From: Glycomyces buryatensis
GTDB taxonomy: Bacteria; Actinomycetota; Actinomycetes; Mycobacteriales; Micromonosporaceae
Direction: 5' to 3'
DNA length: 64,000 nt
NCBI RefSeq assembly: GCF_004912275.1
Contig: NZ_STGY01000071.1
Location: 62,001-126,000 of the forward strand
Positions 15,061 to 31,712 of this stretch are shown here, one piece after another; within the stretch, counting starts at the first letter, position 1; the number at the start of each line of letters is the position of its first letter. Below the pieces are notes generated by a model that was not told where the DNA came from, made no database searches, and worked only from the letters and a program-made list of their open reading frames with translations. Made by a program: the position numbers and the translations under genes.

Positions 15061-16128
15061 GTGCCCAAGAAGTCGAGTACGGAAAACGGAAAGCGCCCCA
15101 CCATTAGGGACGTCGCCGCGCTCGCCGGGGTATCGGTGCCGACGGTCTCGCGGGTGCTGGCCGGGAATTACCCGGTCGCACCCGCGACCCGCGCGAAGGT
15201 CCTGCGGGCCATGCGGGAGCTCGATTACGTGGTCAACGCCCACGCCCGCGCGCTGGCCGGGGCGACGACGAAGACCGTGGCGTTCGTGGTGGACGACGTC
15301 ACCGGACCGTTCTACGCCTTCATCGCTCGCGGCGTCGAGCAGGAAGCCTCCTCGCAGGGGCGGCTGTGTCTGCTGTGCACGACGCATGGAGACCCGGAGC
15401 GGGAGCTCGCGGTCGTGGAGCTGATGCGCGAGCAGCACGCCGAGGCGGTCATCGTCGTCGGCGGCGCCTGGGACGACCCGAAATACGCCGAGCGAATGCG
15501 CTACTTCGCCACCGTCCTCGACAAGTCCGGCTCACGGCTGGTTCTGTGCGGGCGGCCGTCCCTCGGAGAGGACGTTCCGGCCACGGTGGTGCACTACGAC
15601 AATGAGGGTGGGTCGTACGCGATGACCGCGTACCTGCTCTCGGCCGGGCATCGCAAGATCTGCTACATGGGGTTCGGCGTCGGACTCTCCACCACGGATG
15701 AGCGCATGGCCGGCTTCCGTCGCGCCCACGCCGACTACGACGTCGAGGTGGACGAGTCCCTGCTGATCCACGGCCATTTCTCGAAGGCCAGCGGCCGCGA
15801 GATGACCCGGCATCTCCTGGCCGAACGCAGCGACGTCACCGCCATCTTCGCGGCGACGGACATGGTCGCCGCCGGCACGCTGAAGGCGCTGCGGGAGGCC
15901 GGGGTGCGGGTGCCCGAGGACATGTCCGTGGTCGGCTTCGACGACATTCCCCTCGCTTCCGACCTGACCCCGGCCCTCACCACCGTGCACGTCCCCCACG
16001 AGCAACTCGGCAAGGAGGCGGTCCGCCTCGGCCTGGGCCGCTCCGAAACCGGCGACGACCAGGTGGTTCTCGGAACCCACATCGTGGTCAGAGATTCGGT
16101 CGCCCCGCCGAAGCACCTCAGCCACTGA
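15061..16128 (+). CDS. LacI-family transcriptional regulator
   Basis: A 355-residue repressor with an N-terminal helix-turn-helix (TIRDVAALAGVSVPTVSRVL, residues about 15-34), hinge region and a periplasmic-binding-like effector domain containing the dimer-interface run VVGFDDIPLASDLTPALTT. The GTG start follows GAGAAGG by 6 nt. It lies 99 bp after the beta-galactosidase gene and on the same strand, so it most likely senses the sugar or a derivative and represses the permease and lacZ transcripts through the divergent region near 10.8 kb. Confidence 0.92.
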   Translation: MPKKSSTENGKRPTIRDVAALAGVSVPTVSRVLAGNYPVAPATRAKVLRAMRELDYVVNAHARALAGATTKTVAFVVDDVTGPFYAFIARGVEQEASSQGRLCLLCTTHGDPERELAVVELMREQHAEAVIVVGGAWDDPKYAERMRYFATVLDKSGSRLVLCGRPSLGEDVPATVVHYDNEGGSYAMTAYLLSAGHRKICYMGFGVGLSTTDERMAGFRRAHADYDVEVDESLLIHGHFSKASGREMTRHLLAERSDVTAIFAATDMVAAGTLKALREAGVRVPEDMSVVGFDDIPLASDLTPALTTVHVPHEQLGKEAVRLGLGRSETGDDQVVLGTHIVVRDSVAPPKHLSH

Positions 16129-22417: not shown

Positions 22418-22915
22418 ATGGGGAAGCTTACAGTGCTGGCGTTGCGCGTCGTGATCGTCATGTTGGGCGCCGGCTCGTTGTTCGTTCAGTCCGTGATGGT
22501 GCCGATCGTGGTCCAGGACGAGGAGTGGTCCGATGGGCCGCTTCCGAGCCAACTCGTCGCGGGTCTCGTGATCGTGGTCCTCGGCGTCGTCGCGATGCAG
22601 GTGGTCCTGGTCTGCGTCTGGAAACTCGTCACCATGGTGAAGCGGGGAACAGTGTTCTCCAACGCCGCTTTCCGCTACGTGGACGTCGTGATCGGTGCTT
22701 TCGCGGCGGCCGCCGTACTGGTATTCGCGTTCGGGTTCGTGCTGGCGCCGGGCGAAGAGGTCCCCCCGGGAATGGTGCTCCTCGTGGGCGGAGTCGGCAT
22801 AGCCGTCGTGGGTATCGCGCTCGTCGTGCTCGTGATGCGGGCACTGCTGGCCCAGGCCGTCGCGCGCGATGCCGAAGCGACGCAACTGCGCGACGAGCTG
22901 GACGAGGTGATCTGA
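22418..22915 (+). CDS. DUF2975 membrane protein
   Basis: A 165-residue membrane protein with four hydrophobic helices at about residues 8-30, 45-65, 82-105 and 116-140, matching DUF2975 (YoaS-like). AGGAGG lies 4 nt before the ATG. Its stop overlaps the start of a YozG-type HTH gene by one base, the gene order seen in many Gram-positive bacteria where the two are always paired. The function is unknown; a membrane sensor coupled to the HTH regulator is the usual suggestion. Confidence 0.85.
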   Translation: MGKLTVLALRVVIVMLGAGSLFVQSVMVPIVVQDEEWSDGPLPSQLVAGLVIVVLGVVAMQVVLVCVWKLVTMVKRGTVFSNAAFRYVDVVIGAFAAAAVLVFAFGFVLAPGEEVPPGMVLLVGGVGIAVVGIALVVLVMRALLAQAVARDAEATQLRDELDEVI

Positions 22916-23121
22916 TGCCGATCGTCGTCGATATCGACGTGGTACTGGCCAAGCGGAAGATGTCCGTGGGCGAGCTGGCGGACCGCGTCGGCATCACCCC
23001 CGCCAACCTGTCGGTCCTCAAGAACGGCCGCGCCAAGGCGGTCCGGTTCACCACCCTCGCCGCACTCTGCGAAGTCCTGGAATGCCAGCCCGGGGATCTG
23101 CTCCGGTGGGAGTCCGACTAA
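22915..23121 (+). CDS. YozG-type helix-turn-helix regulator
   Basis: A 68-residue Cro/CI-family protein consisting of little more than the DNA-binding domain: VVLAKRKMSVGELADRVGIT, then PANLSVLKNGRAKAVRFTTL, then CEVLECQPGDLLRW. It is the standard partner of DUF2975 proteins. The ATG overlaps the last base of the upstream stop codon, so the two proteins are made together. It probably binds the inverted repeat at 22370-22384 and controls its own operon. Confidence 0.9.
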   Translation: MPIVVDIDVVLAKRKMSVGELADRVGITPANLSVLKNGRAKAVRFTTLAALCEVLECQPGDLLRWESD

Positions 23122-23356: not shown

Positions 23357-25252
23357 ATGTCCCCGAGACCAACTCCGCTCATAGGACCCAGATCCGTCCC
23401 CCGAAAGGCCTCAAGGGACCAGACCGGCCGCTACCTCAAGGCCCCCGGCCCCGAATCCGAACGCCCGCCCGTCCTCAACTTCACCGGACCTCCCGGATTC
23501 GGCAAGACCACCCTGCTGCGCCAGCTCGACAAGTGGTACGAAGCGGACGAAGAACCCCCGCACGCACTCGTCGACAGCAGCGACTACCCCAAGCTGGAAG
23601 ACCTCCCCAAAATGCTCGAGGAGATCAAGTTCCAGCTCGGACGACGCAGCCCCGGGTACGGCCGCATCCCCTTCCGCCGCCTTGAACTCGCGCTGGCGGT
23701 GACCGAGCAGCCCGTCGACTTCACCGACCAGGGACACGCCTACCGCCGACTGAAGCGACTGACGCGCAAGGCCTCCCGCAGCCGCCGCGTTCCCGAAGTG
23801 GGCGGCGGCGTGCTCGGCGACGTTTTCCAGTCGCTCGTGCAGATGCCGCTCGCGCTGCTGCGCACCCCCGTCGAAATGATCGTGACCGCCGCGATCTCCT
23901 TCCTCATGAGCCGCCCGCTCGCCCGCCGCCGCTTCCAGAAATGGTTCGGACACCGCGACCAGGGACGCACCATCCACCCCGAAGACGCGCTCGCCCACCT
24001 CAATCGCACCGCCCAGACGCCCCGCCTGTTCCGCGAACGCGACGAGCTCCTGGTGGACGCCTTCCTCGCCGACCTGCGCGACGCCTATGGCCGCGGCAGA
24101 CTCTCACGGCCCGGCTGGCTCTCGTGCGTCGTCCTGCTCGACAATGCCGACAGCCGCGTCGGCACCCAGTTCCTGCGCCACTTCCGCCACCTGCGCAGCC
24201 AACTCCAGCACACCGCCGCCCGCGCCGAACCCCTCCTGGTCGTCACCGCCAGCCGCGAACCCATCGGCGGCGCCTCAATGGAAGTGCACCCCGTTCCCGC
24301 CTTCACCGAGAACGACGTGGAATGGCTCGCCTCCGACCTGCCCGAGGTCGACGAGCAGGAATGGCTGCCCAAACTCATCCACCAGACCACCGGCTACCCC
24401 GCCGCTGCCGCCGCGCTCGTCCGGACCGCCTGCGCGAAACCGGAGTCCGCCACCGGCATCGACGCGCTCCTGGCCCAGGCCTCGACCGACGGGCCTGACC
24501 ACCGCAGCCTCGAAGACCGGCTCTACCAGGACCTCGTGAACCATCTGCTCGTCGAGTCGGGCCCGCTCCCGTTCCCCGACGCGGCCCTTGACGCCTTCAT
24601 CACCTTCTCCGCCGCCCGGAACCAGACCGAAGCCGACCACCTCGCCAAGGCGCGCAAGGGAAGCGTCCTCGCCGACCCCGCCCTCATCCTCCAATCCGAC
24701 CTGTGGTCCGAGGAGAGCGGCACTGCCGCCCACGCCCTGCTGCGATGGCTCCTGTCCCGGCGCCTCGCCCGGCGCGGCGACGGCGAATGGAGCTGGAAGG
24801 AGGTCCACGCGACCCTGCGGGTCTGGTGCCGCACCCGAGGCGACCTGGCCGGCGAACTGCACCACGCGCTCGCGGGCGGCGACCTCGCCGCCGTGTCCAA
24901 AGTGCTCGCCGACCGACTGTCCGGGCAGGATCTGGAGGGGCGCTGGCTGGACCTGCTCAGGGAGGTCACCAAGGCGCCCCGCCAGGGAGGCGACGGGACC
25001 GGCGAGCCCTACTCGCGGCAGGTCGCCCTCGCGAAATCCATCATGGACCCCGCGCGGCCCCAACTCGCCCACATCGCCCACCTGGTCGCCGGGCTGTGGC
25101 TCGCCGCCTCCCCGACCACCGGTTCGGAGCGACGCAGCCTGCACCGGCAGATCTCGCTGGACTACCGCCAGGTCGCGCCCTATGCCGACCGCCCCGCAGA
25201 CCTGATCGAGGAAGCCGACCGGCACGAACGGCTGGCCGAGGACTGGCACTAG
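23357..25252 (+). CDS. STAND-like P-loop ATPase with a possible membrane-inserted segment
   Basis: A 631-residue protein. The Walker A motif GPPGFGKTT lies at 44-52 and a Walker B-like CVVLLDNAD near 256-264, followed by a sensor-like VVTASREP, the arrangement of STAND/Orc-type ATPases. Between them, around residues 150-187, sits an unusual hydrophobic run (VFQSLVQMPLALL, then VEMIVTAAISFLM) that may dip into the membrane. The C-terminal 280 residues are helical without recognisable TPR or WD repeats. AGGAA precedes the ATG by 7 nt, and TATGAT at 23222 may be its promoter. It is followed on the same strand by two membrane-anchored binding-protein homologues, implying one functional unit. The exact role is not known. 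Confidence 0.7.
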   Translation: MSPRPTPLIGPRSVPRKASRDQTGRYLKAPGPESERPPVLNFTGPPGFGKTTLLRQLDKWYEADEEPPHALVDSSDYPKLEDLPKMLEEIKFQLGRRSPGYGRIPFRRLELALAVTEQPVDFTDQGHAYRRLKRLTRKASRSRRVPEVGGGVLGDVFQSLVQMPLALLRTPVEMIVTAAISFLMSRPLARRRFQKWFGHRDQGRTIHPEDALAHLNRTAQTPRLFRERDELLVDAFLADLRDAYGRGRLSRPGWLSCVVLLDNADSRVGTQFLRHFRHLRSQLQHTAARAEPLLVVTASREPIGGASMEVHPVPAFTENDVEWLASDLPEVDEQEWLPKLIHQTTGYPAAAAALVRTACAKPESATGIDALLAQASTDGPDHRSLEDRLYQDLVNHLLVESGPLPFPDAALDAFITFSAARNQTEADHLAKARKGSVLADPALILQSDLWSEESGTAAHALLRWLLSRRLARRGDGEWSWKEVHATLRVWCRTRGDLAGELHHALAGGDLAAVSKVLADRLSGQDLEGRWLDLLREVTKAPRQGGDGTGEPYSRQVALAKSIMDPARPQLAHIAHLVAGLWLAASPTTGSERRSLHRQISLDYRQVAPYADRPADLIEEADRHERLAEDWH

Positions 25253-25298
25253 GGGGTGTGTGGTGGTACCGAACGGCCTGGCTCCACCACACGCCCCT
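25251..25298 (+). terminator. Intergenic hairpin between the ATPase and first binding-protein gene
   Basis: GTGTGGTGG pairs exactly with CCACCACAC across 17 nt, extended by AGGGG with CCCCT. It starts at the ATPase stop codon. Lacking a T tract, it may attenuate rather than end transcription and so set the ATPase to binding-protein ratio. Confidence 0.5.
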
Positions 25299-25330
25299 GC
25301 CGGCCCCGCACACACGCTTGAGGAGAGAGC

Positions 25331-26815
25331 ATGTCCAACGGACGTCAGAGATGGAAGCAGCGCAAGCGGGTCGTCATCGGCACGGTCATCGCGCTGGGAT
25401 CGATCCTGCTGGCCTACTTCGTGATCACCACCGTGCCCGACGCCCGCTGCGGCGGCCCGTTCGACGGCATCCGCTTCCAGGAGGGCGAATGCGTCGGCGT
25501 CACCGACGGCTCGTTCGTCTTCGATCCCGCGCTCGCGGCGATCCAGGCGGACATCAAGGCCGAGAACGACTGGGCCCAGGCCGAATCCGAGAGCTCGGGC
25601 GTCGCGCTGGTGAAGGTGGGCCTGCTGATGCCGATCACCACCACCGCCAACAGCGCCGTGAATCTCGACGTCGTGCTCAGTTCGCTCCAGGGCGCCTATG
25701 TGGCGCTCCACCGTTCCAACCACACCGTCGAGTTCGGCGACCCGCAGCCGCTGGTCCAGCTCCACCTCGCCAACGAGGGCAGCGTCCAGCAGGGCTCGGC
25801 GATGGCCGTGTCGCAGCTGGTGGACATGACCGACGACGAGGTGCCGCTGATCGCCGTCATGGGGCCCGCCATCGGCACAGAGACCACCAGGGAGTCCGTC
25901 ACCCGGCTTTCGGATGCGGACATCCCCGTCATCACCGGGGCGACCACCGCCGACGACCTCGACAACGACAGCGTCGAGAACCTGCTGCGCACCGCCCCCA
26001 GCAATACCGACTTCGCGACGGCGCTGCGCCACTACCTCGACGACCGGCCCGAAGGCGAACTGGAGACCGGCATCCTCGTCTACGACGACATCGCGCAGGA
26101 CACCTTCGTCACCACGCTCCGCGAGGCCTACGAGACCCAGCTGGGCGACTACATCGAGTTCTCCGACCAGCCATTCAAGGGCCAATCGGTGGAGCAGGGC
26201 GGGCCCGACGTGTTCTACCCGATCACCCAGAACATCTGCTCGGCCGAGCCGGACATGGTCTTCTTCGCCGGGCGCGCGCCCGACGCCGAGGTCTTCATCG
26301 AGGCGCTGAGCGAGCGGGTGTGCGTGGCCGAGCACCTCACCGTCATGTTCGTCGAGGTCGGGCTGTATCCGCGGGGCGAGGAGGTGCTCGACCAGTTGGA
26401 GACGGGGAACCTCACCCTCCTGCACGCCACCGGCGCCGACCCCGGCTGGGCCCGCGGTGAGAAGGCGGCCCCCGAGGGCTTCGCGGACTTCCACGGATAC
26501 TTCCAGGACCTGGTCGACCCCGACCCCGTCTCCCTGGACAACGGCTACGCGATCACCTACCACGACTCCCTCGCGATCGCGGTCAGGGCCATGCGGATCA
26601 CCAGGCCGCAGGACGAGGGCGCCCCCACGGCGGCCGAGGTGACCGAGAGTCTGCTGCTGCTCAACACCGACAACACCGTCCAGGGCGCGAGCGGGACGCT
26701 CAGCTTCAACCGCAACCGGGGCGGCAACCCCGGCGGCAAGTACGTCCCGGTCATACCGCTGCCCTACTCCGAGGAGTACGCGGAGAACCAGACCTACATC
26801 ACCCCTGAGGAATAG
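25331..26815 (+). CDS. Membrane-anchored periplasmic-binding-fold protein (LivJ-like), copy 1
   Basis: A 494-residue protein with a single TM helix near residues 14-34 after a basic cytosolic stub (RQRWKQRKR), so the large domain faces outside. That domain resembles type 1 periplasmic binding proteins of branched-chain amino acid transporters: VKVGLLMPIT at the start, PVITGATTADDL, RTAPSNTDFATAL, and the closing ASGTLSFNRNRGGNPGG. It has no lipobox and no neighbouring ABC permease. A CVGVTDGSFVF motif lies just after the TM. GAGGAGA lies 4 nt before the ATG. It is likely an extracellular sensor working with the upstream ATPase, not a transporter part; this is inference. Confidence 0.75.
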   Translation: MSNGRQRWKQRKRVVIGTVIALGSILLAYFVITTVPDARCGGPFDGIRFQEGECVGVTDGSFVFDPALAAIQADIKAENDWAQAESESSGVALVKVGLLMPITTTANSAVNLDVVLSSLQGAYVALHRSNHTVEFGDPQPLVQLHLANEGSVQQGSAMAVSQLVDMTDDEVPLIAVMGPAIGTETTRESVTRLSDADIPVITGATTADDLDNDSVENLLRTAPSNTDFATALRHYLDDRPEGELETGILVYDDIAQDTFVTTLREAYETQLGDYIEFSDQPFKGQSVEQGGPDVFYPITQNICSAEPDMVFFAGRAPDAEVFIEALSERVCVAEHLTVMFVEVGLYPRGEEVLDQLETGNLTLLHATGADPGWARGEKAAPEGFADFHGYFQDLVDPDPVSLDNGYAITYHDSLAIAVRAMRITRPQDEGAPTAAEVTESLLLLNTDNTVQGASGTLSFNRNRGGNPGGKYVPVIPLPYSEEYAENQTYITPEE

Positions 26816-26826
26816 GAGACCGAGCG

Positions 26827-28314
26827 ATGTCCGAAGGCAGGGACCGCTGGCAGCGGTGGATGGGTACCCTCATCGGCTCGTTGATGGCAATGGTGCTGGT
26901 CGTGAGCGTCGTCAGCATCGTGCTCGTGTGGCCCGACGTCCGGTGTGGTTCTCCTTTGGACGGGATCGTCCTCAAGGAGGGCGAGTGCGTCGGGGTCAGC
27001 GACGGCTCGTTCGTCTTCGACGAGGCGCACCGGGAGGTGTACGAGGACATCGCGGACGAGAACGAATGGGCCGCGGCCGAAGCCGAGGCCGAAGGTCTTC
27101 CGCTGGTGCGGATCGCGCTCATGACGACGCTGACGACCACGCAGGACAGCGCGATGAGCGCCGACCGCATCCGCAGCGCACTCGACGGGGCGCTGGTGGC
27201 CCTGCACCGCGCCAACCGAACCCGCGAACTGGGCGACCCGCATCCACTGGTGCAGCTGGTCCTCGCGAACGAGGGCGCCCGCCAGACCCATTGGGAGGTG
27301 CCGGTCTCGGAGCTGGAGGACATGTCCGACGACGAGGTGCCGCTCGTGGCCGTCATGGGCCAGGGGGTCAGCAGCGACCGCACGATGGACGCGGCGTACC
27401 GGCTCTCCAAGCACGAGATCCCCATGGTCACCGGGGTCACCACCGCCGACGGCATCGACAACGGGATCATCCCCGGCCTGCTGCGCGCCGCGCCGAGCAA
27501 CACCGACTTCGCCATGGCGCTGCGGCAGTACGTCGACGGCCGCGAGGACATCGCCTCGGCGGTCCTGGTCCACGACAACGCCGAGACCGACCTGTACGCC
27601 CGGACGCTGCGCAGCGCGTACGAGGAGCACCTGAGCGAGTACCTGACGTCCTCCCACCAGCCGTTCCCGGGACGCTCGATCGAGGAGGGCGGTGTGGAGG
27701 TGTTCGACACGATCACCCAGAACGTCTGCGAGTCGGAGGCCCAGGCGGTCCTGTTCGCCGGCCGCGAGCCCGACCTGAAGGTCTTCATCGAGTCGTTGAG
27801 CCTGCGCGCCTGCCAGAGCGACCCGCTGACGGTCCTGTTCGGGGTCACCGGCACCGACCTACAGGCCGACGAGGAGGTCCTGGGCTGGATCGAGGAAGGC
27901 AACCTGTCGGTGCTGTACGCCGCCGGGGCCGATCCCGGCTGGGGCGACGGCGCCGAGACGCCGGAGGGCTTCGCGGACTTCCAGACCCACTTCGAGAACC
28001 TGGTGGGCGGCGGCCGGGAGGCCCTCGCCAACGGCTACGCGGTCACCTACCACGACGCCCTCATGACGGCGGTGAGCGCCGTACGGATCACCAACCCGTG
28101 GAGCGAGGAACCGCCGACGGCCGGGGACGTCCGCGACCACCTGTTGCTGCTCAACAGCGAGCAGGTGGTGCGCGGCGCGAGCGGGACGCTGAGCTTCAAC
28201 GAGAACCGCGACGGGAATCCGGGCGGCAAGTACGTCCCGGTGGTCCCGCTGCCGTATCCCGAGGACCCGGCGGACCTGCCACAGACAGGCCCGTACATAA
28301 CGCCGGTGCAGTGA
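26827..28314 (+). CDS. Membrane-anchored periplasmic-binding-fold protein (LivJ-like), copy 2
   Basis: A 495-residue tandem paralogue of the preceding protein, co-linear over its whole length: TM helix near residues 17-38, then ECVGVSDGSFVFDEA, VTGVTTADGIDN, APSNTDFAMALRQYV and ASGTLSFNENRDGNPGG. The pair has clearly diverged outside these blocks, which suggests different ligands or a heterodimer. The spacing is 11 bp after copy 1 and AGGAG lies 7 nt before the ATG. The last 456 bp are overlapped antisense by an unusually long GH43 reading frame. Confidence 0.75.
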   Translation: MSEGRDRWQRWMGTLIGSLMAMVLVVSVVSIVLVWPDVRCGSPLDGIVLKEGECVGVSDGSFVFDEAHREVYEDIADENEWAAAEAEAEGLPLVRIALMTTLTTTQDSAMSADRIRSALDGALVALHRANRTRELGDPHPLVQLVLANEGARQTHWEVPVSELEDMSDDEVPLVAVMGQGVSSDRTMDAAYRLSKHEIPMVTGVTTADGIDNGIIPGLLRAAPSNTDFAMALRQYVDGREDIASAVLVHDNAETDLYARTLRSAYEEHLSEYLTSSHQPFPGRSIEEGGVEVFDTITQNVCESEAQAVLFAGREPDLKVFIESLSLRACQSDPLTVLFGVTGTDLQADEEVLGWIEEGNLSVLYAAGADPGWGDGAETPEGFADFQTHFENLVGGGREALANGYAVTYHDALMTAVSAVRITNPWSEEPPTAGDVRDHLLLLNSEQVVRGASGTLSFNENRDGNPGGKYVPVVPLPYPEDPADLPQTGPYITPVQ

Positions 28315-29982
28315 GGAACGGTGGTGCGGCAGGGGCCGGGCCGCACGTAAAACCCTTATGGACCCTAAGGCACCCGGACGGTAGTCGGCGTAGTCGAAGT
28401 CGGCGCTTCCGCCCTCATCCGCCAAGTCCTGAACCCACAGGCCCACAAAGGCTCCGGTGAAACCGAAGGCGTGGAGCATTCCGTTCTCGACCCACGTCGC
28501 ATGTTCATCGGACAGGATCGTCGCGTCGCGATCCTCGCTCAGGTCAATCCATTCGACCTGCTGCTCGGAATGCGGATCGCGGTAGCCGAAACGAAGCCTC
28601 GGTCCCTCGAATGCGATTCGGAGTTCAAGCCTCGGGCCCACCTCGGCGATCCGCTCAACCGTGCAGCGGCCCCGATCGGAGGTCACCAGCGACAGCCACG
28701 ACGCTCCATCCTTCTGCGACACTTGAAGAAAGTGCCAGTTGAAGCTGTTGTAGTACGCCGCAATGCCGGCACTCTGGTGTTCGGTCTCCGGAGTGAACTC
28801 CATGCCGACCTCGAGAACCCCCTGTTTCGCGGTGACCCGCTGCGCCACCAGGCTCGGGGTGCGCCTCCCGTGCGGCGATTGACCGCCGCGGATGCGCAGG
28901 TGCGACGGCCTGGCGGTGAGGCTGAGCCAGTCCGGGTCCGCGTGGCGGCGGAGGGTGTTCCAGCGCGGGTCCAGTTCCGGCGATTCGAAGTCGTCGCGAG
29001 TGTCGGCGCGGGGCCAGGGATGCGGTTCCAGCGCGGGCGCCTCGACCTCCACCGCGGGGGCCGCGTTCTCGATTCTGGGCCAGCCCGCATCCCACTCGAC
29101 CTTCGCCACCGCGGTCTCTCTTCCGAGCACGCAGCGGCCCGTCACGTCGCGCTGGCGGGCGTCCGTCGGCGGGCTCGGTTCGATCTCGGTGTACGGCCGT
29201 GAGGTCAGGTACGTCATGTACCACTCCCCCGCCTCGGTCTCCACGAAGCAGCCGTGACCGGCCTTCTGGAGATCCAGGTCGAGCTTGTCGCGGGTGGTGA
29301 GCAGCGGGCCGTTCGGGTCGACCTCATAGGGCCCCTTCAGGTCACGAGAGCGAGCGACGATCGCTCCGTGATTGAAGCCGGTGCCGCCCTCGGCGCACAG
29401 CAGGTAGTACCAACCGTTCTTCTTATAGAGATGCGGGCCCTCGGTGATACCGGCCGAACTCCCCCGCAGGATCAGTTCGGGCCGTCCGATGGCCTTGCCG
29501 TCCTCCAGCTGCTGGATCTCAATCCCTCGGAAGCCCATCACCATGTTCAGCAGCCAGGTGCCGCCGTCCTCGTCGTGATACAGCGCCGCGTCGAATCCCC
29601 GGCCGGGCAGGCGGACCGGGTCCGTCCACGGACCCGCGATGTCGGTGGCGGTGATGAGGTAGTTGGCGCAGTCCTTGTAGCCGTAGGCGTAGTTGTCCAG
29701 GACGCTGAAGACCAGGTGGAAGCGGCCGTTCGCGTACGTCAGGTCCGGCGCCCACACGCCGCCCGAGTCGGGGACGCCGTGGACGTCGAGCAGTCGCGGC
29801 GAGTCGGCGATGCCGCCGAGGGTCCGCCAGTGCCGCAGGTCCCGCGAGTGGTGGAGGCGGATTCCGGGCGCCCATTCGAAGGTCGAGGTGGCGATGTAGT
29901 AGTCGGCGCCGACCCGCACGATGGACGGATCGGGGTGGAATCCCGGGAGGATCGGGTTGCGGATGAGCGACGGAGTATTCAC
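27859..29982 (-). CDS. Glycoside hydrolase family 43 enzyme (beta-xylosidase-like), stop codon apparently lost
   Basis: The GTG at 29982 begins TPSLIRNPILPGFHPDPSIV, the conserved GH43 five-blade propeller start with the base Asp (HPDPS). Further marks are GGVWAPDL, the acid EGPHLYKK and the C-terminal jelly-roll domain ending DFDYADYRPG near 28366. Normal family members stop there, but here the frame stays open for another 500 bp, running antisense through the 3' end of the binding-protein gene to 27859. A shift of one base after GGGTG would give a TAG at once, so a lost stop or an indel is likely. No signal peptide; predicted substrates are xylo- or arabino-oligosaccharides. There is no clear ribosome binding site. 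Confidence 0.75.
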   Translation of the reverse strand: MNTPSLIRNPILPGFHPDPSIVRVGADYYIATSTFEWAPGIRLHHSRDLRHWRTLGGIADSPRLLDVHGVPDSGGVWAPDLTYANGRFHLVFSVLDNYAYGYKDCANYLITATDIAGPWTDPVRLPGRGFDAALYHDEDGGTWLLNMVMGFRGIEIQQLEDGKAIGRPELILRGSSAGITEGPHLYKKNGWYYLLCAEGGTGFNHGAIVARSRDLKGPYEVDPNGPLLTTRDKLDLDLQKAGHGCFVETEAGEWYMTYLTSRPYTEIEPSPPTDARQRDVTGRCVLGRETAVAKVEWDAGWPRIENAAPAVEVEAPALEPHPWPRADTRDDFESPELDPRWNTLRRHADPDWLSLTARPSHLRIRGGQSPHGRRTPSLVAQRVTAKQGVLEVGMEFTPETEHQSAGIAAYYNSFNWHFLQVSQKDGASWLSLVTSDRGRCTVERIAEVGPRLELRIAFEGPRLRFGYRDPHSEQQVEWIDLSEDRDATILSDEHATWVENGMLHAFGFTGAFVGLWVQDLADEGGSADFDYADYRPGALGSIRVLRAARPLPHHRSSLHRRYVRACLWQVRRVLGIRQRDHRDVLAARIPVAVLVEAQRPARAAHHLLAVEQQQVVADVPGRRRFLAPRVGDPYGAHRRHEGVVVGDRVAVGEGLPAAAHQVLEVGLEVREALRRLGAVAPAGIGPGGVQHRQVAFLDPAQDLLVGL
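28324..28346. terminator. Weak bidirectional terminator
   Basis: GTGCGGC and GCCGCAC flank a 9-nt GC-rich loop 10 bp after the second binding-protein stop. On the minus strand it is preceded by GTTTTAC and lies where the GH43 gene would normally be expected to end. Confidence 0.5.
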
Positions 29983-30207
29983 AGCTGCCGATTCAACCGG
30001 CGCGGAGGACGCGGGGCAAGCGATTCGGAGGCCGAACGGGGTATCGATAATTTCGAATCGCCCGCCTGTAGTTCGGGAGCGCCCCGGAGCGTCGTCGCAA
30101 ATCGGGCAGCGGGAGCTCCCCCCGTTTCGATTGTTCACGGGGGTGCGACAGCGGTCCGACGAAATCGCGGTGGTGCGATGTCGGACCTCTGGGTCAGAAT
30201 TGCCGAC

Positions 30208-30450
30208 ATGACTGCGTCCGATGCGAGTTTCCAGATCCGTCCCGTCCGCGAATCCGAGCACCAGGCGCTCGGTGAGGTCACCGTCCAGGCCTATCTCGAA
30301 GGGGGTTTCCTGCACGGCGCCAAGGACAGCTACGCCGCCGAGCTGCGAAAGGTCGCCGAGCGCACCCTCACCGCGACGGTCCTGGTGGCGATGGACGGCG
30401 AGCAGCTGATCGGCGGCGTCACCTACGCCCCGCCGGGAAGCGCCTCGAGC
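30208..30450 (+). pseudogene. GNAT N-acetyltransferase, 3'-truncated remnant
   Basis: The first 80 codons match the start of a GNAT domain: FQIRPVRESEHQALGEVTVQAY, then LVAMDGEQLIGGVTYAPPGS (strands 1 to 4). The similarity stops at about 30449, before the acetyl-CoA-binding motif RGxGxG that should follow. From there the sequence is a short tandem repeat and the antisense 3' end of the sulfotransferase gene. The open frame runs on to 30579 but encodes nothing GNAT-like. The remainder appears deleted. Confidence 0.75.
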
Positions 30451-30512
30451 CAGTGGGGATCTAACCCGGTGGGATTCGATCCAGTGGGGATTTGCGCCAG
30501 TGAGATTTACTC
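30450..30512. repeat. Four tandem imperfect copies of a 15-16 bp unit at the GNAT breakpoint
   Basis: The unit is CC(A/G)GTGGGGATTT, with copies starting at 30450, 30466, 30481 and 30497. The last copy overlaps the sulfotransferase stop codon (TAA read from 30509). Confidence 0.75.
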
Positions 30513-31712
30513 CAGATCGCCGATGAAGCGGCGGTACTCGGAGAAGACCTGGTTGACCTCGGTCTCGGTGATTCCGTAAGGGCTCAACTCGTACTTGTGG
30601 CGGCCACCGGATCCGCCGGGACGGTCGAGGGCGGTTTCGAGCGTGTCCTGTTCCGCCTTGCCCCACGGGGTGTCGAGGCGTTCGAACAGCTCGGGGATGC
30701 GCTCCCTGGCCTCCTTCGTGAGGTGCTCGTAGGGCACATCGATGATGGTGTCGCGCGGCTGTTGGCGGCGGACGGCCCGGGTGCGGTCGATGCCGGTGGC
30801 GAGCAGGCCCAGCCACTGGCGGCCGATCGAATGCGGGTCGGGCTTGTGCATGTGAAGCGACATCGAGGTCTCCGCGAGCGAGCACATCGAGGCGAGGACG
30901 GTCGCGGGTTCGCGGTGCGTCCACACGATCTCGGCGTCGGGGAAGGTCTTGAGGAGGACGTCGAGACTCCACAGGTGTGCCGGGGACTTGAGCACCCACC
31001 GGCGGCGGGGACGACCGTGCTGGAGGACCTGGAGTCCCTGTTTGAGGTAGCGGTAGTCGTCGGTGTAGTCGCGTTCGAGCATCCACTGGACGTAGCGGGG
31101 CGAGTCCGCCCGGACGGCGAACATCAGGCCGTGCGGAAGCAGGAAGACGCACTCCTCCGGCTCATCGGTGCCGATGGAGTGGATGTTGCGGAAGTCCGGG
31201 GCGACCTTGTCCATGCCAACGGTGATCCGGTCGGACCGCTTGCGGTATTCGTCCCGAGTCTCCTGCGAGATATCGCCGAGGTCGGTGCTCATGAGCTCCC
31301 ACAGCAGCGGGGCCCGGTGGGCCTCCGGAGCGCCGAGGAGGCGGTGGAGGAGGGTGGTGCCGGTGCGGGGCATCCCGACGATGACGATGGGCCGTTCGAT
31401 GGGTTCGGCCGCGATCTCGGGGTGCTGGACGTGGAGCTTGCGGATGCGCAGCCGGTTCTCGATGCGCGTGCTCACGTCGTTGATCATGCCGGACCAGCCG
31501 GTGGGGCTGAGCCCGTCGATGTCGGCGAAACATCGCAGCAGGAAGCGGTAGTCATCGATGAACTGCTCATCGCCCGAGTGGGTGCCGCCGATGCGAGTTT
31601 CGGCATTGTGGACGGCCTTTTCGATGATCTTGTCGATCTTCTTGCGTCGGTTGGCGATGGTTGGAGTCAGGACCGTGTTGACGGCCTTCAGCCATGGTGC
31701 GACTCGATTCAT
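30507..31712 (-). CDS. Sulfotransferase family protein
   Basis: A 401-residue enzyme of the Sulfotransfer_3 type. The 5'-phosphosulfate-binding P-loop is GMPRTGTTLLHRLL near residues 112-125 and the 3'-phosphate-binding region is KSPAHLWSLD followed by DAEIVWTHREP. It would transfer sulfate from PAPS to a small molecule or glycolipid; the acceptor is unknown. In mycobacteria related proteins sulfate trehalose or menaquinone. The ATG at 31712 is favoured over the TTG at 31721 because GGGAGAG lies 9 nt before it. The neighbouring acyltransferase suggests joint decoration of a surface lipid or glycan. Confidence 0.88.
   Translation of the reverse strand: MNRVAPWLKAVNTVLTPTIANRRKKIDKIIEKAVHNAETRIGGTHSGDEQFIDDYRFLLRCFADIDGLSPTGWSGMINDVSTRIENRLRIRKLHVQHPEIAAEPIERPIVIVGMPRTGTTLLHRLLGAPEAHRAPLLWELMSTDLGDISQETRDEYRKRSDRITVGMDKVAPDFRNIHSIGTDEPEECVFLLPHGLMFAVRADSPRYVQWMLERDYTDDYRYLKQGLQVLQHGRPRRRWVLKSPAHLWSLDVLLKTFPDAEIVWTHREPATVLASMCSLAETSMSLHMHKPDPHSIGRQWLGLLATGIDRTRAVRRQQPRDTIIDVPYEHLTKEARERIPELFERLDTPWGKAEQDTLETALDRPGGSGGRHKYELSPYGITETEVNQVFSEYRRFIGDLE

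What the first reader, a model, noticed from the sequence alone, without database searches (positions are those of the whole stretch)
23357..28314. STAND-like ATPase plus two membrane-anchored LivJ-fold proteins: candidate undescribed signalling or defence unit
Seen: a P-loop ATPase with a hydrophobic segment near residues 150-187, then two tandem paralogous proteins each with one N-terminal TM and an external type 1 periplasmic-binding domain, all on one strand with gaps of 79 and 11 bp. No ABC permease, lipobox or transport ATPase is nearby, so amino-acid uptake does not fit. Known: STAND-type ATPases act as ligand-triggered switches and are common in bacterial conflict systems. Inferred: external ligand binding by the paired sensors is passed across the membrane to the ATPase. 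The intergenic hairpin may set their ratio. I recall similar gene sets in streptomycetes annotated only as binding proteins, so the set may be widespread but uncharacterised.
Basis: partly seen in the sequence, partly recalled or inferred. Interest (0 to 1): 0.75.

Follow-up and report, generated by a model that had tools for sequence, protein, structure and literature searches.

The report
Membrane sensor paired with switch ATPase
Three neighbouring genes of an actinobacterium encode an ATPase related in fold to cell-death and immune switches and two membrane-anchored outer sensors; the ATPase-sensor pair recurs in other actinobacteria, sometimes as one fused protein, so it is probably an undescribed way of passing an outside signal into the cell.

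Summary
Window 23357-28314 (+; genus Glycomyces by inference) encodes a P-loop ATPase (631 aa) and two N-terminally anchored proteins (494 and 495 aa, 53% identical) with a type 1 periplasmic-binding (Venus-flytrap) domain; no LivHM-type permease lies on the contig.

In 59 of 67 distinct sensor loci elsewhere the ATPase gene lies directly upstream (43) or is fused in front of the sensor (16); so do all 29 best loci tested from a further genus, probably Streptomyces, where 118 of 150 genomes match the sensor family. No third specific gene recurs.

The tandem pair of sensors is not general: none of 82 other loci has one. The two sensors belong to two Glycomyces lineages and differ at a predicted ligand-clamp residue.

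ATPases without the C-terminal half (fused or short) also lack Walker A (0 of 22, against 29 of 37 full-length), so two modes are likely: an ATP-driven switch and a pseudo-ATPase relay.

Best reading: a split transmembrane receptor, external binding domain plus cytosolic STAND-like ATPase. Ligand and output are unknown. Defence is not supported by PADLOC or neighbours, though two relatives adjoin caspase genes. New variant of a known kind.

The parts
23357..25252 (+). P-loop ATPase P0001 (631 aa), STAND-like, with an all-helical C-terminal half
23486..23509 (+). Walker A motif GPPGFGKT (residues 44-51)
   Evidence: no canonical Walker A in any of 22 truncated or fused relatives
24125..24148 (+). 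Walker B motif VVLLDNAD (residues 257-264)
   Evidence: strand in the model
23849..23905 (+). Weak hydrophobic segment of the ATPase (residues 165-183); membrane contact not shown
   Evidence: gapped in Amycolatopsis rows
25253..25297 (+). Intergenic hairpin with a 14-bp stem
   Evidence: z -3.18; not seen by eye in relative L093
25331..26815 (+). Sensor 1 (P0002, 494 aa): N-terminal TM helix and external type 1 PBP domain; Gly at the predicted ligand-clamp Ser
25370..25426 (+). TM helix of sensor 1 (residues 14-32)
26827..28314 (+). Sensor 2 (P0003, 495 aa): N-terminal TM helix and external type 1 PBP domain
26872..26928 (+). TM helix of sensor 2 (residues 16-34)

Best explanation
The genes encode a split transmembrane receptor. 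Shown by sequence or model: one hydrophobic anchor helix and a Venus-flytrap domain with four nearly invariant cysteines per sensor; a STAND-like P-loop ATPase encoded just upstream; conserved order and frequent fusion. Inferred: the flytrap lies outside and closes on a small ligand, the change passes through the TM helix to the ATPase held beneath it, and ATP binding or exchange then switches the ATPase (perhaps to an oligomer) to drive an unknown output through its helical C-terminal half. Relatives without the P-loop and the C-terminal half would relay the signal without ATP. The two sensors of this genome, from two Glycomyces lineages, probably give one ATPase two ligand specificities.
For: ATPase directly upstream (43) or fused in front (16) in 59 of 67 distinct sensor loci; upstream in 29 of 29 best loci tested in one further genus. 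From the ATPase side, 22 of 28 genomes with a match have the sensor next to it or fused, by coordinates. No third specific family recurs. In fused proteins the order is ATPase-like part, TM, PBP, which puts the first inside if the PBP is outside. Folds. Cys columns kept in 70, 69, 70 and 70 of 70 rows (a few rows identical). PBPs of the same family follow other N-terminal parts, e.g. several TM helices in the seven printed of L111-L121 and L126. Columns aligned to LIV-BP Ser79 and Thr102 are S/T in 66 and 61 of 70 rows. No LivHM permease on the contig, whereas an ordinary LivJ relative has two beside it (L047).
Against: Five of 28 genomes with an ATPase match, all of one genus, have it with no sensor beside it; the Walker A lysine is missing in the three of them whose sequence was printed there (L151, L153, L154). 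A sixth (G610) has it on a 4.5-kb contig without a sensor. Eight of 67 sensors have no detected ATPase. Eight of 37 full-length ATPases have no canonical Walker A. No contact between the proteins, no ligand, no ATPase activity and no output is shown. Fold matches do not separate STAND from ORC/Cdc6 or even p97 and RFC, and Foldseek E-values for the ATPase are weak (best 0.003).
Confidence: 0.62

Rival explanations
1. A conflict or phage-defence unit in which the ATPase is a STAND-type alarm and the sensors detect an invader or envelope damage.
For: Fold similarity to Avs3, RdrA, plant NLR and Apaf-1 relatives among many other AAA+ proteins. Two relatives (L122, L140) have a caspase-domain gene beside the sensor, and PMC7159879 section 33 (read in full) reports caspase proteins with TM plus external PBP in a conflict system prevalent in actinobacteria. 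Patchy presence: 6 of the 16 own-genus genomes listed had a sensor match.
Against: Best PADLOC E for the three proteins is 0.059; among 20 aligned ATPases three members match two PADLOC families weakly (best E 0.002); nine neighbours give only weak HTH matches. Pfam shows no effector domain in P0001. 118 of 150 genomes of one genus match the sensor family, more like a common trait than an island.
Confidence: 0.15
2. Ordinary amino-acid uptake: the sensors are orphan substrate-binding proteins that feed a distant LivHM permease.
For: LivJ-like fold and clamp residues; 19 permease matches elsewhere in the genome.
Against: TM anchor instead of lipobox, four conserved cysteines, frequent link or fusion to a non-ABC P-loop-type protein, no LivHM permease on the contig.
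Confidence: 0.05
3. A structural or regulatory scaffold without switching: the ATPase domain is mainly a docking module, ATP use being secondary, and the external domain binds cell-wall or envelope material.
For: No canonical Walker A in 30 of 59 distinct pairs (some of these keep a GxxGxGR or GKG variant). Short Glycomyces ATPases differ more than their sensors (59-61% against 76-82% identity among L089-L091).
Against: 29 of 37 full-length ATPases keep canonical Walker A, which suggests that nucleotide matters there; the PBP keeps clamp residues.
Confidence: 0.15

Closest known systems
GlnH-GlnX-PknG signalling of actinobacteria (PMC6069109, PMC9769921; titles and starts of abstracts seen in a search listing)
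   Same: An extracytoplasmic binding protein controls, with a membrane protein, a cytosolic signalling protein.
   Different: There the output is a Ser/Thr kinase and the TM protein (GlnX) is separate; here one TM is built into the sensor and the partner is a P-loop ATPase.
[quoted passage not shown]
   Same: Two-gene membrane-associated system prevalent in actinobacteria; some caspase proteins carry TM plus external PBP; STAND NTPases occur among the C-terminal domains. In L122 and L140 a caspase gene adjoins a sensor of the present family.
   Different: No caspase domain in the window's set; the partner of the PBP is the ATPase. EACC1 itself was not sought.
MalT-MalK control of the maltose system (structure 8bob listed; biology recalled)
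   Same: A STAND ATPase under control of a membrane transport system.
   Different: MalT ends in a DNA-binding domain and is held by the ABC ATPase MalK (recalled); no such parts were found here.
LivJ/LIV-BP and mGluR ligand domains
   Same: Type 1 PBP fold and probable carboxylate clamp.
   Different: Here anchored by an N-terminal TM, with conserved extra cysteines and linked to a P-loop-type protein.

Membership tests
STAND NTPase | P-loop with Walker A and Walker B | tested here: met
   GPPGFGKT and VVLLDNAD in P0001; AAA_22 above cut-off
STAND NTPase | Match to a curated STAND model above its cut-off | tested here: not met
   nSTAND_NTPase5 15.2 bits against 34, nSTAND3 14.6 against 27.2. 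Hence 'STAND-like', not filed as a member
STAND NTPase | STAND rather than another AAA+ fold | tested here: inconclusive
   Z (rmsd, aligned): Cdc6 1fnn 11.8 (3.1, 160), MalT 8bob 11.6 (18.1, 278), Avs3 8dgc 10.7 (13.2, 215), NRC4 9cc8 10.4 (3.7, 151), CED-4 3lqq 10.1 (4.8, 151), p97 7jy5 9.9 (3.8, 136)
STAND NTPase | Winged helix and C-terminal repeat or sensor region | tested here: inconclusive
   Mostly helical from residue 318 on; structural matches span mainly 10-392
ABC uptake binding protein (LivJ type) | Type 1 PBP fold | tested here: met
ABC uptake binding protein (LivJ type) | Linked LivHM-type permease | tested here: not met
   None on the contig; the ordinary locus L047 has two
ABC uptake binding protein (LivJ type) | Lipobox | tested here: not met
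   Read directly from the sequences
EACC1/caspase conflict system | Caspase domain beside or fused to the PBP | tested here: not met
   No PF00656 match in P0001-P0003; found beside relatives L122 and L140
EACC1/caspase conflict system | EACC1 gene | not tested
   Not sought by model or by eye
Known anti-phage systems (PADLOC) | Match of core proteins | tested here: not met
   best E 0.059; best E 0.002, three of 20 members

The most novel reading that the evidence does not exclude
A widespread, undescribed class of actinobacterial receptor in which a metabotropic-glutamate-receptor-like outer domain directly controls, across one membrane helix, an Apaf-1/NLR-like ATPase, with a second evolved branch that has turned the ATPase into a pseudo-enzyme relay fused to the sensor.
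Probability: 0.45. Interest if true: 0.78.

Novelty: new variant of a known kind. Interest (0 to 1): 0.6.

Why it matters
PBP-type outer sensors joined to signalling proteins are known; a STAND-like ATPase as the dedicated partner of one, split over two genes or fused, was not found in print in the ten literature searches made. The sensor family matches 118 of 150 genomes of one genus, probably Streptomyces (two-gene, fused and other forms together). If the reading is true it offers a simple system to study how ligand binding outside a membrane controls a STAND-like switch inside, and a new outside-to-inside route in a group known for antibiotics.

Tried and rejected
Ordinary uptake: rejected (no LivHM permease, TM anchor, fusions). 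Tandem sensors as the unit: rejected, single sensors are the rule in the loci scanned. Hairpin as a conserved ratio device: no support in L093 (by eye). A third partner gene: clustering of neighbours in 58 loci plus the window region gave, among families in three or more groups, only the sensor (28 groups), the ATPase (14) and common ones such as ABC ATPases (6), LacI and LysR regulators, dehydrogenases and SGNH proteins (genus labels partly mine, named by eye from sequence starts). Viral carriage: 83 pattern matches, none a relative. Plasmids: four records with the sensor and three with the ATPase among 72,556, all actinobacterial replicons of 1.8-11.9 Mb with no gene annotated under the match. 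pN/pS of the short ATPases: 0.63-1.21, not corrected for codon bias in GC-rich genes; no conclusion drawn. The Fisher test (p 8e-10) ignores ancestry; by eye on the tree the truncated forms fall into about three or four origins. Left out of the 67: two duplicate loci, two pieces of the broken L102 sensor and the 13 other matches under 140 bits (L111-L121, L126, L128). The tally (80 of 150) includes weak matches to LivJ-like frames of about 400 residues and is not used as a count of the system; the own-genus count 6 of 16 includes the window genome and G627 (L142), whose N-terminal part is not recognised. The phylum tally (10 of 396) scored only three candidates per genome and includes the window genome and two weak matches of that kind. 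No complex could be modelled with the tools at hand.
Full report
Observation. P0001 has Walker A and B and matches Pfam AAA_22 at 1.8e-7; P0002 and P0003 match no Pfam family even at E 10 and each other at 53%. Of 13 members of the wider sensor family four match ANF_receptor (best 4.8e-6). The sensor profile finds Leu/Ile/Val-binding proteins in the PDB, and the P0003 model (pLDDT 89) is a type 1 PBP. The P0001 model (pLDDT 78; residues 143-194 under 50) has an AAA+ fold: the best structural matches are Cdc6 (Z 11.8, rmsd 3.1, 160 aligned) and MalT (11.6, 18.1, 278), then ORC, Avs3 (10.7, 13.2, 215), NRC4 (10.4, 3.7, 151), CED-4 (10.1, 4.8, 151) and RdrA (9.9, 5.6, 198), but p97 (9.9, 3.8, 136) is tied with these. 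Foldseek alone gave nothing better than E 0.003. I call it STAND-like, because no curated STAND model reaches its cut-off.

Organism. This is inference.

Conservation of the block. A sensor search in 150 genomes of the order found matches in 23. Twenty stretches around them, 22 named loci from GTDB genomes (Glycomyces 5, Nocardiopsaceae 3, Micromonospora 6, Amycolatopsis 8) and 40 further stretches chosen from the scans were scanned with local profiles: 82 loci. One (L047) is an ordinary LivJ locus with two BPD_transp_2 permeases. Of 67 distinct sensors scoring at least 140 bits, the window's own not counted, 43 have the ATPase directly upstream on the same strand (its stop codon -5 to 158 bases before the start of the sensor alignment), 16 are fused behind it, and 8 have none detected. 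The eight are L100 (its second sensor), L101 (contig begins a few hundred bases before it), L122 and L140 (a caspase-domain gene beside them), L129 (an N-terminal part that by eye reads like a helix-turn-helix; only the PBP matched Pfam), L142, L125 and L127 (the last two lie in the clade of fused forms and have long N-terminal parts that the profile does not recognise). In one genus of the same class (genomes of 5.5-12.4 Mb; Streptomyces is my inference) 118 of 150 genomes matched the sensor family at 1e-15. Thirty loci were returned there; the 29 new ones all show the C-terminal part of the ATPase just upstream, and the thirtieth (G490) does so too (L130). These are the best-scoring loci only; lower-scoring ones, many with frames of 900 residues or more, were not read.

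Counter-check from the ATPase side. In 150 genomes of the window's family 28 had an ATPase match at 1e-10 (eight candidates scored per genome). By coordinates 22 of them have the sensor next to it or fused. Five, all of one genus, have the ATPase without a sensor near; the gene upstream is a DUF4407 membrane protein in the two scanned (L151, L152) and looks alike in the other three. The Walker A lysine is missing in the three printed (L151, L153, L154). The last (G610) lies on a 4.5-kb contig with no sensor, in a genome with a sensor on another contig. So the link is strong, not absolute.

Two forms. Of the 59 distinct pairs, 37 ATPases keep the C-terminal half and 29 of these have a canonical Walker A ([GA]xxxxGK[ST]); 22 lack that half (16 fused, 6 separate) and none has it. 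On the sensor tree (68 rows) the first clade (18 rows, 99/98) holds all 16 fused forms together with L125 and L127, with open frames of 898 residues or more; the short Glycomyces ATPases belong to another clade, and L134 and L136 to unresolved branches, so by eye the joint loss arose about three or four times. This suggests that nucleotide binding and the C-terminal half work together, and that a second branch relays the signal without them (inference).

The window's own peculiarity. P0002 is sister to the single sensor of Glycomyces sp. L485 (L093; 75% identity, 59% for the ATPase); P0003 groups with the sensors of four other Glycomyces (64-67%) whose ATPases are short and without P-loop. The genome therefore holds both sensor lineages behind one full ATPase. 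At the position aligned with LIV-BP Ser79, P0003 has Ser and P0002 has Gly, as do L093 and L133; that Ser79 and Thr102 bind the ligand carboxylate in LIV-BP is recalled. Different ligands are likely. None of the other 81 loci, L047 aside, shows two adjacent sensors; L100 has two about 4 kb apart.

Mechanism. An external flytrap, one TM and a cytosolic switch ATPase is the simplest reading of order, topology and fusion. The helical C-terminal half is the candidate output. Precedents: GlnH-GlnX-PknG for a binding protein used in signalling (PMC6069109, PMC9769921; titles and abstract starts in a listing), MalT for a STAND ATPase under transporter control (recalled; structure listed), and caspase proteins with TM and PBP in actinobacterial conflict systems (PMC7159879: section 33 read in full, passages otherwise). 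Passages of PMC8195603 and PMC1592074 were also seen. None of these describes this pair in what I saw, and the ten literature searches found no such description, in a library that lacks most subscription papers.

Defence. PADLOC gives E 0.059 at best for the three proteins, two weak families in three of 20 aligned ATPases, and only weak HTH matches for two of nine neighbours. The window neighbours include an HNH/DUF222 protein, a reductase, DUF4360, DUF2975 with a small HTH regulator, a sulfotransferase, an acyltransferase and a thioesterase. The caspase neighbours of L122 and L140 keep a conflict role possible.

Noticed in passing
window 27859-31152 (-): A long minus-strand ORF that reads like a GH43 glycosidase (recalled motifs, no search) has no stop near its expected end and reads on antisense into the end of sensor 2; a frame error or unusual overlap.
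   Followed up: no
window 22418-23121 (+): DUF2975 membrane protein followed by a small HTH_26 regulator, 235 bp upstream of the block; not shown to belong to it.
   Followed up: partly
window 15061-16128 (+): A LacI-type regulator whose relatives lie just downstream of the block in L090, L092 and L095, hinting at a shared, rearranged neighbourhood.
   Followed up: no
L122:5691-7733 (-); L140:6098-9001 (+): Caspase-domain proteins (the first with HSP70) beside a sensor of this family.
   Followed up: partly
L111-L121, L126: Long proteins with a distant PBP of the same family; the seven printed have several N-terminal TM helices by hydropathy; no Pfam match in the one scanned (L117).
   Followed up: no
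L151-L155: ATPase homologues without a sensor, beside a DUF4407-type membrane protein gene, in five species of one genus; Walker A lysine missing in the three printed.
   Followed up: partly
L100:9340-11883 (-): A NACHT-domain protein with two C-terminal TM segments converges on a sensor gene that has no detected ATPase partner in Micromonospora parva.
   Followed up: no
L102: The sensor gene of one Allosalinactinospora locus is broken over three frames while its ATPase frame is open.
   Followed up: no
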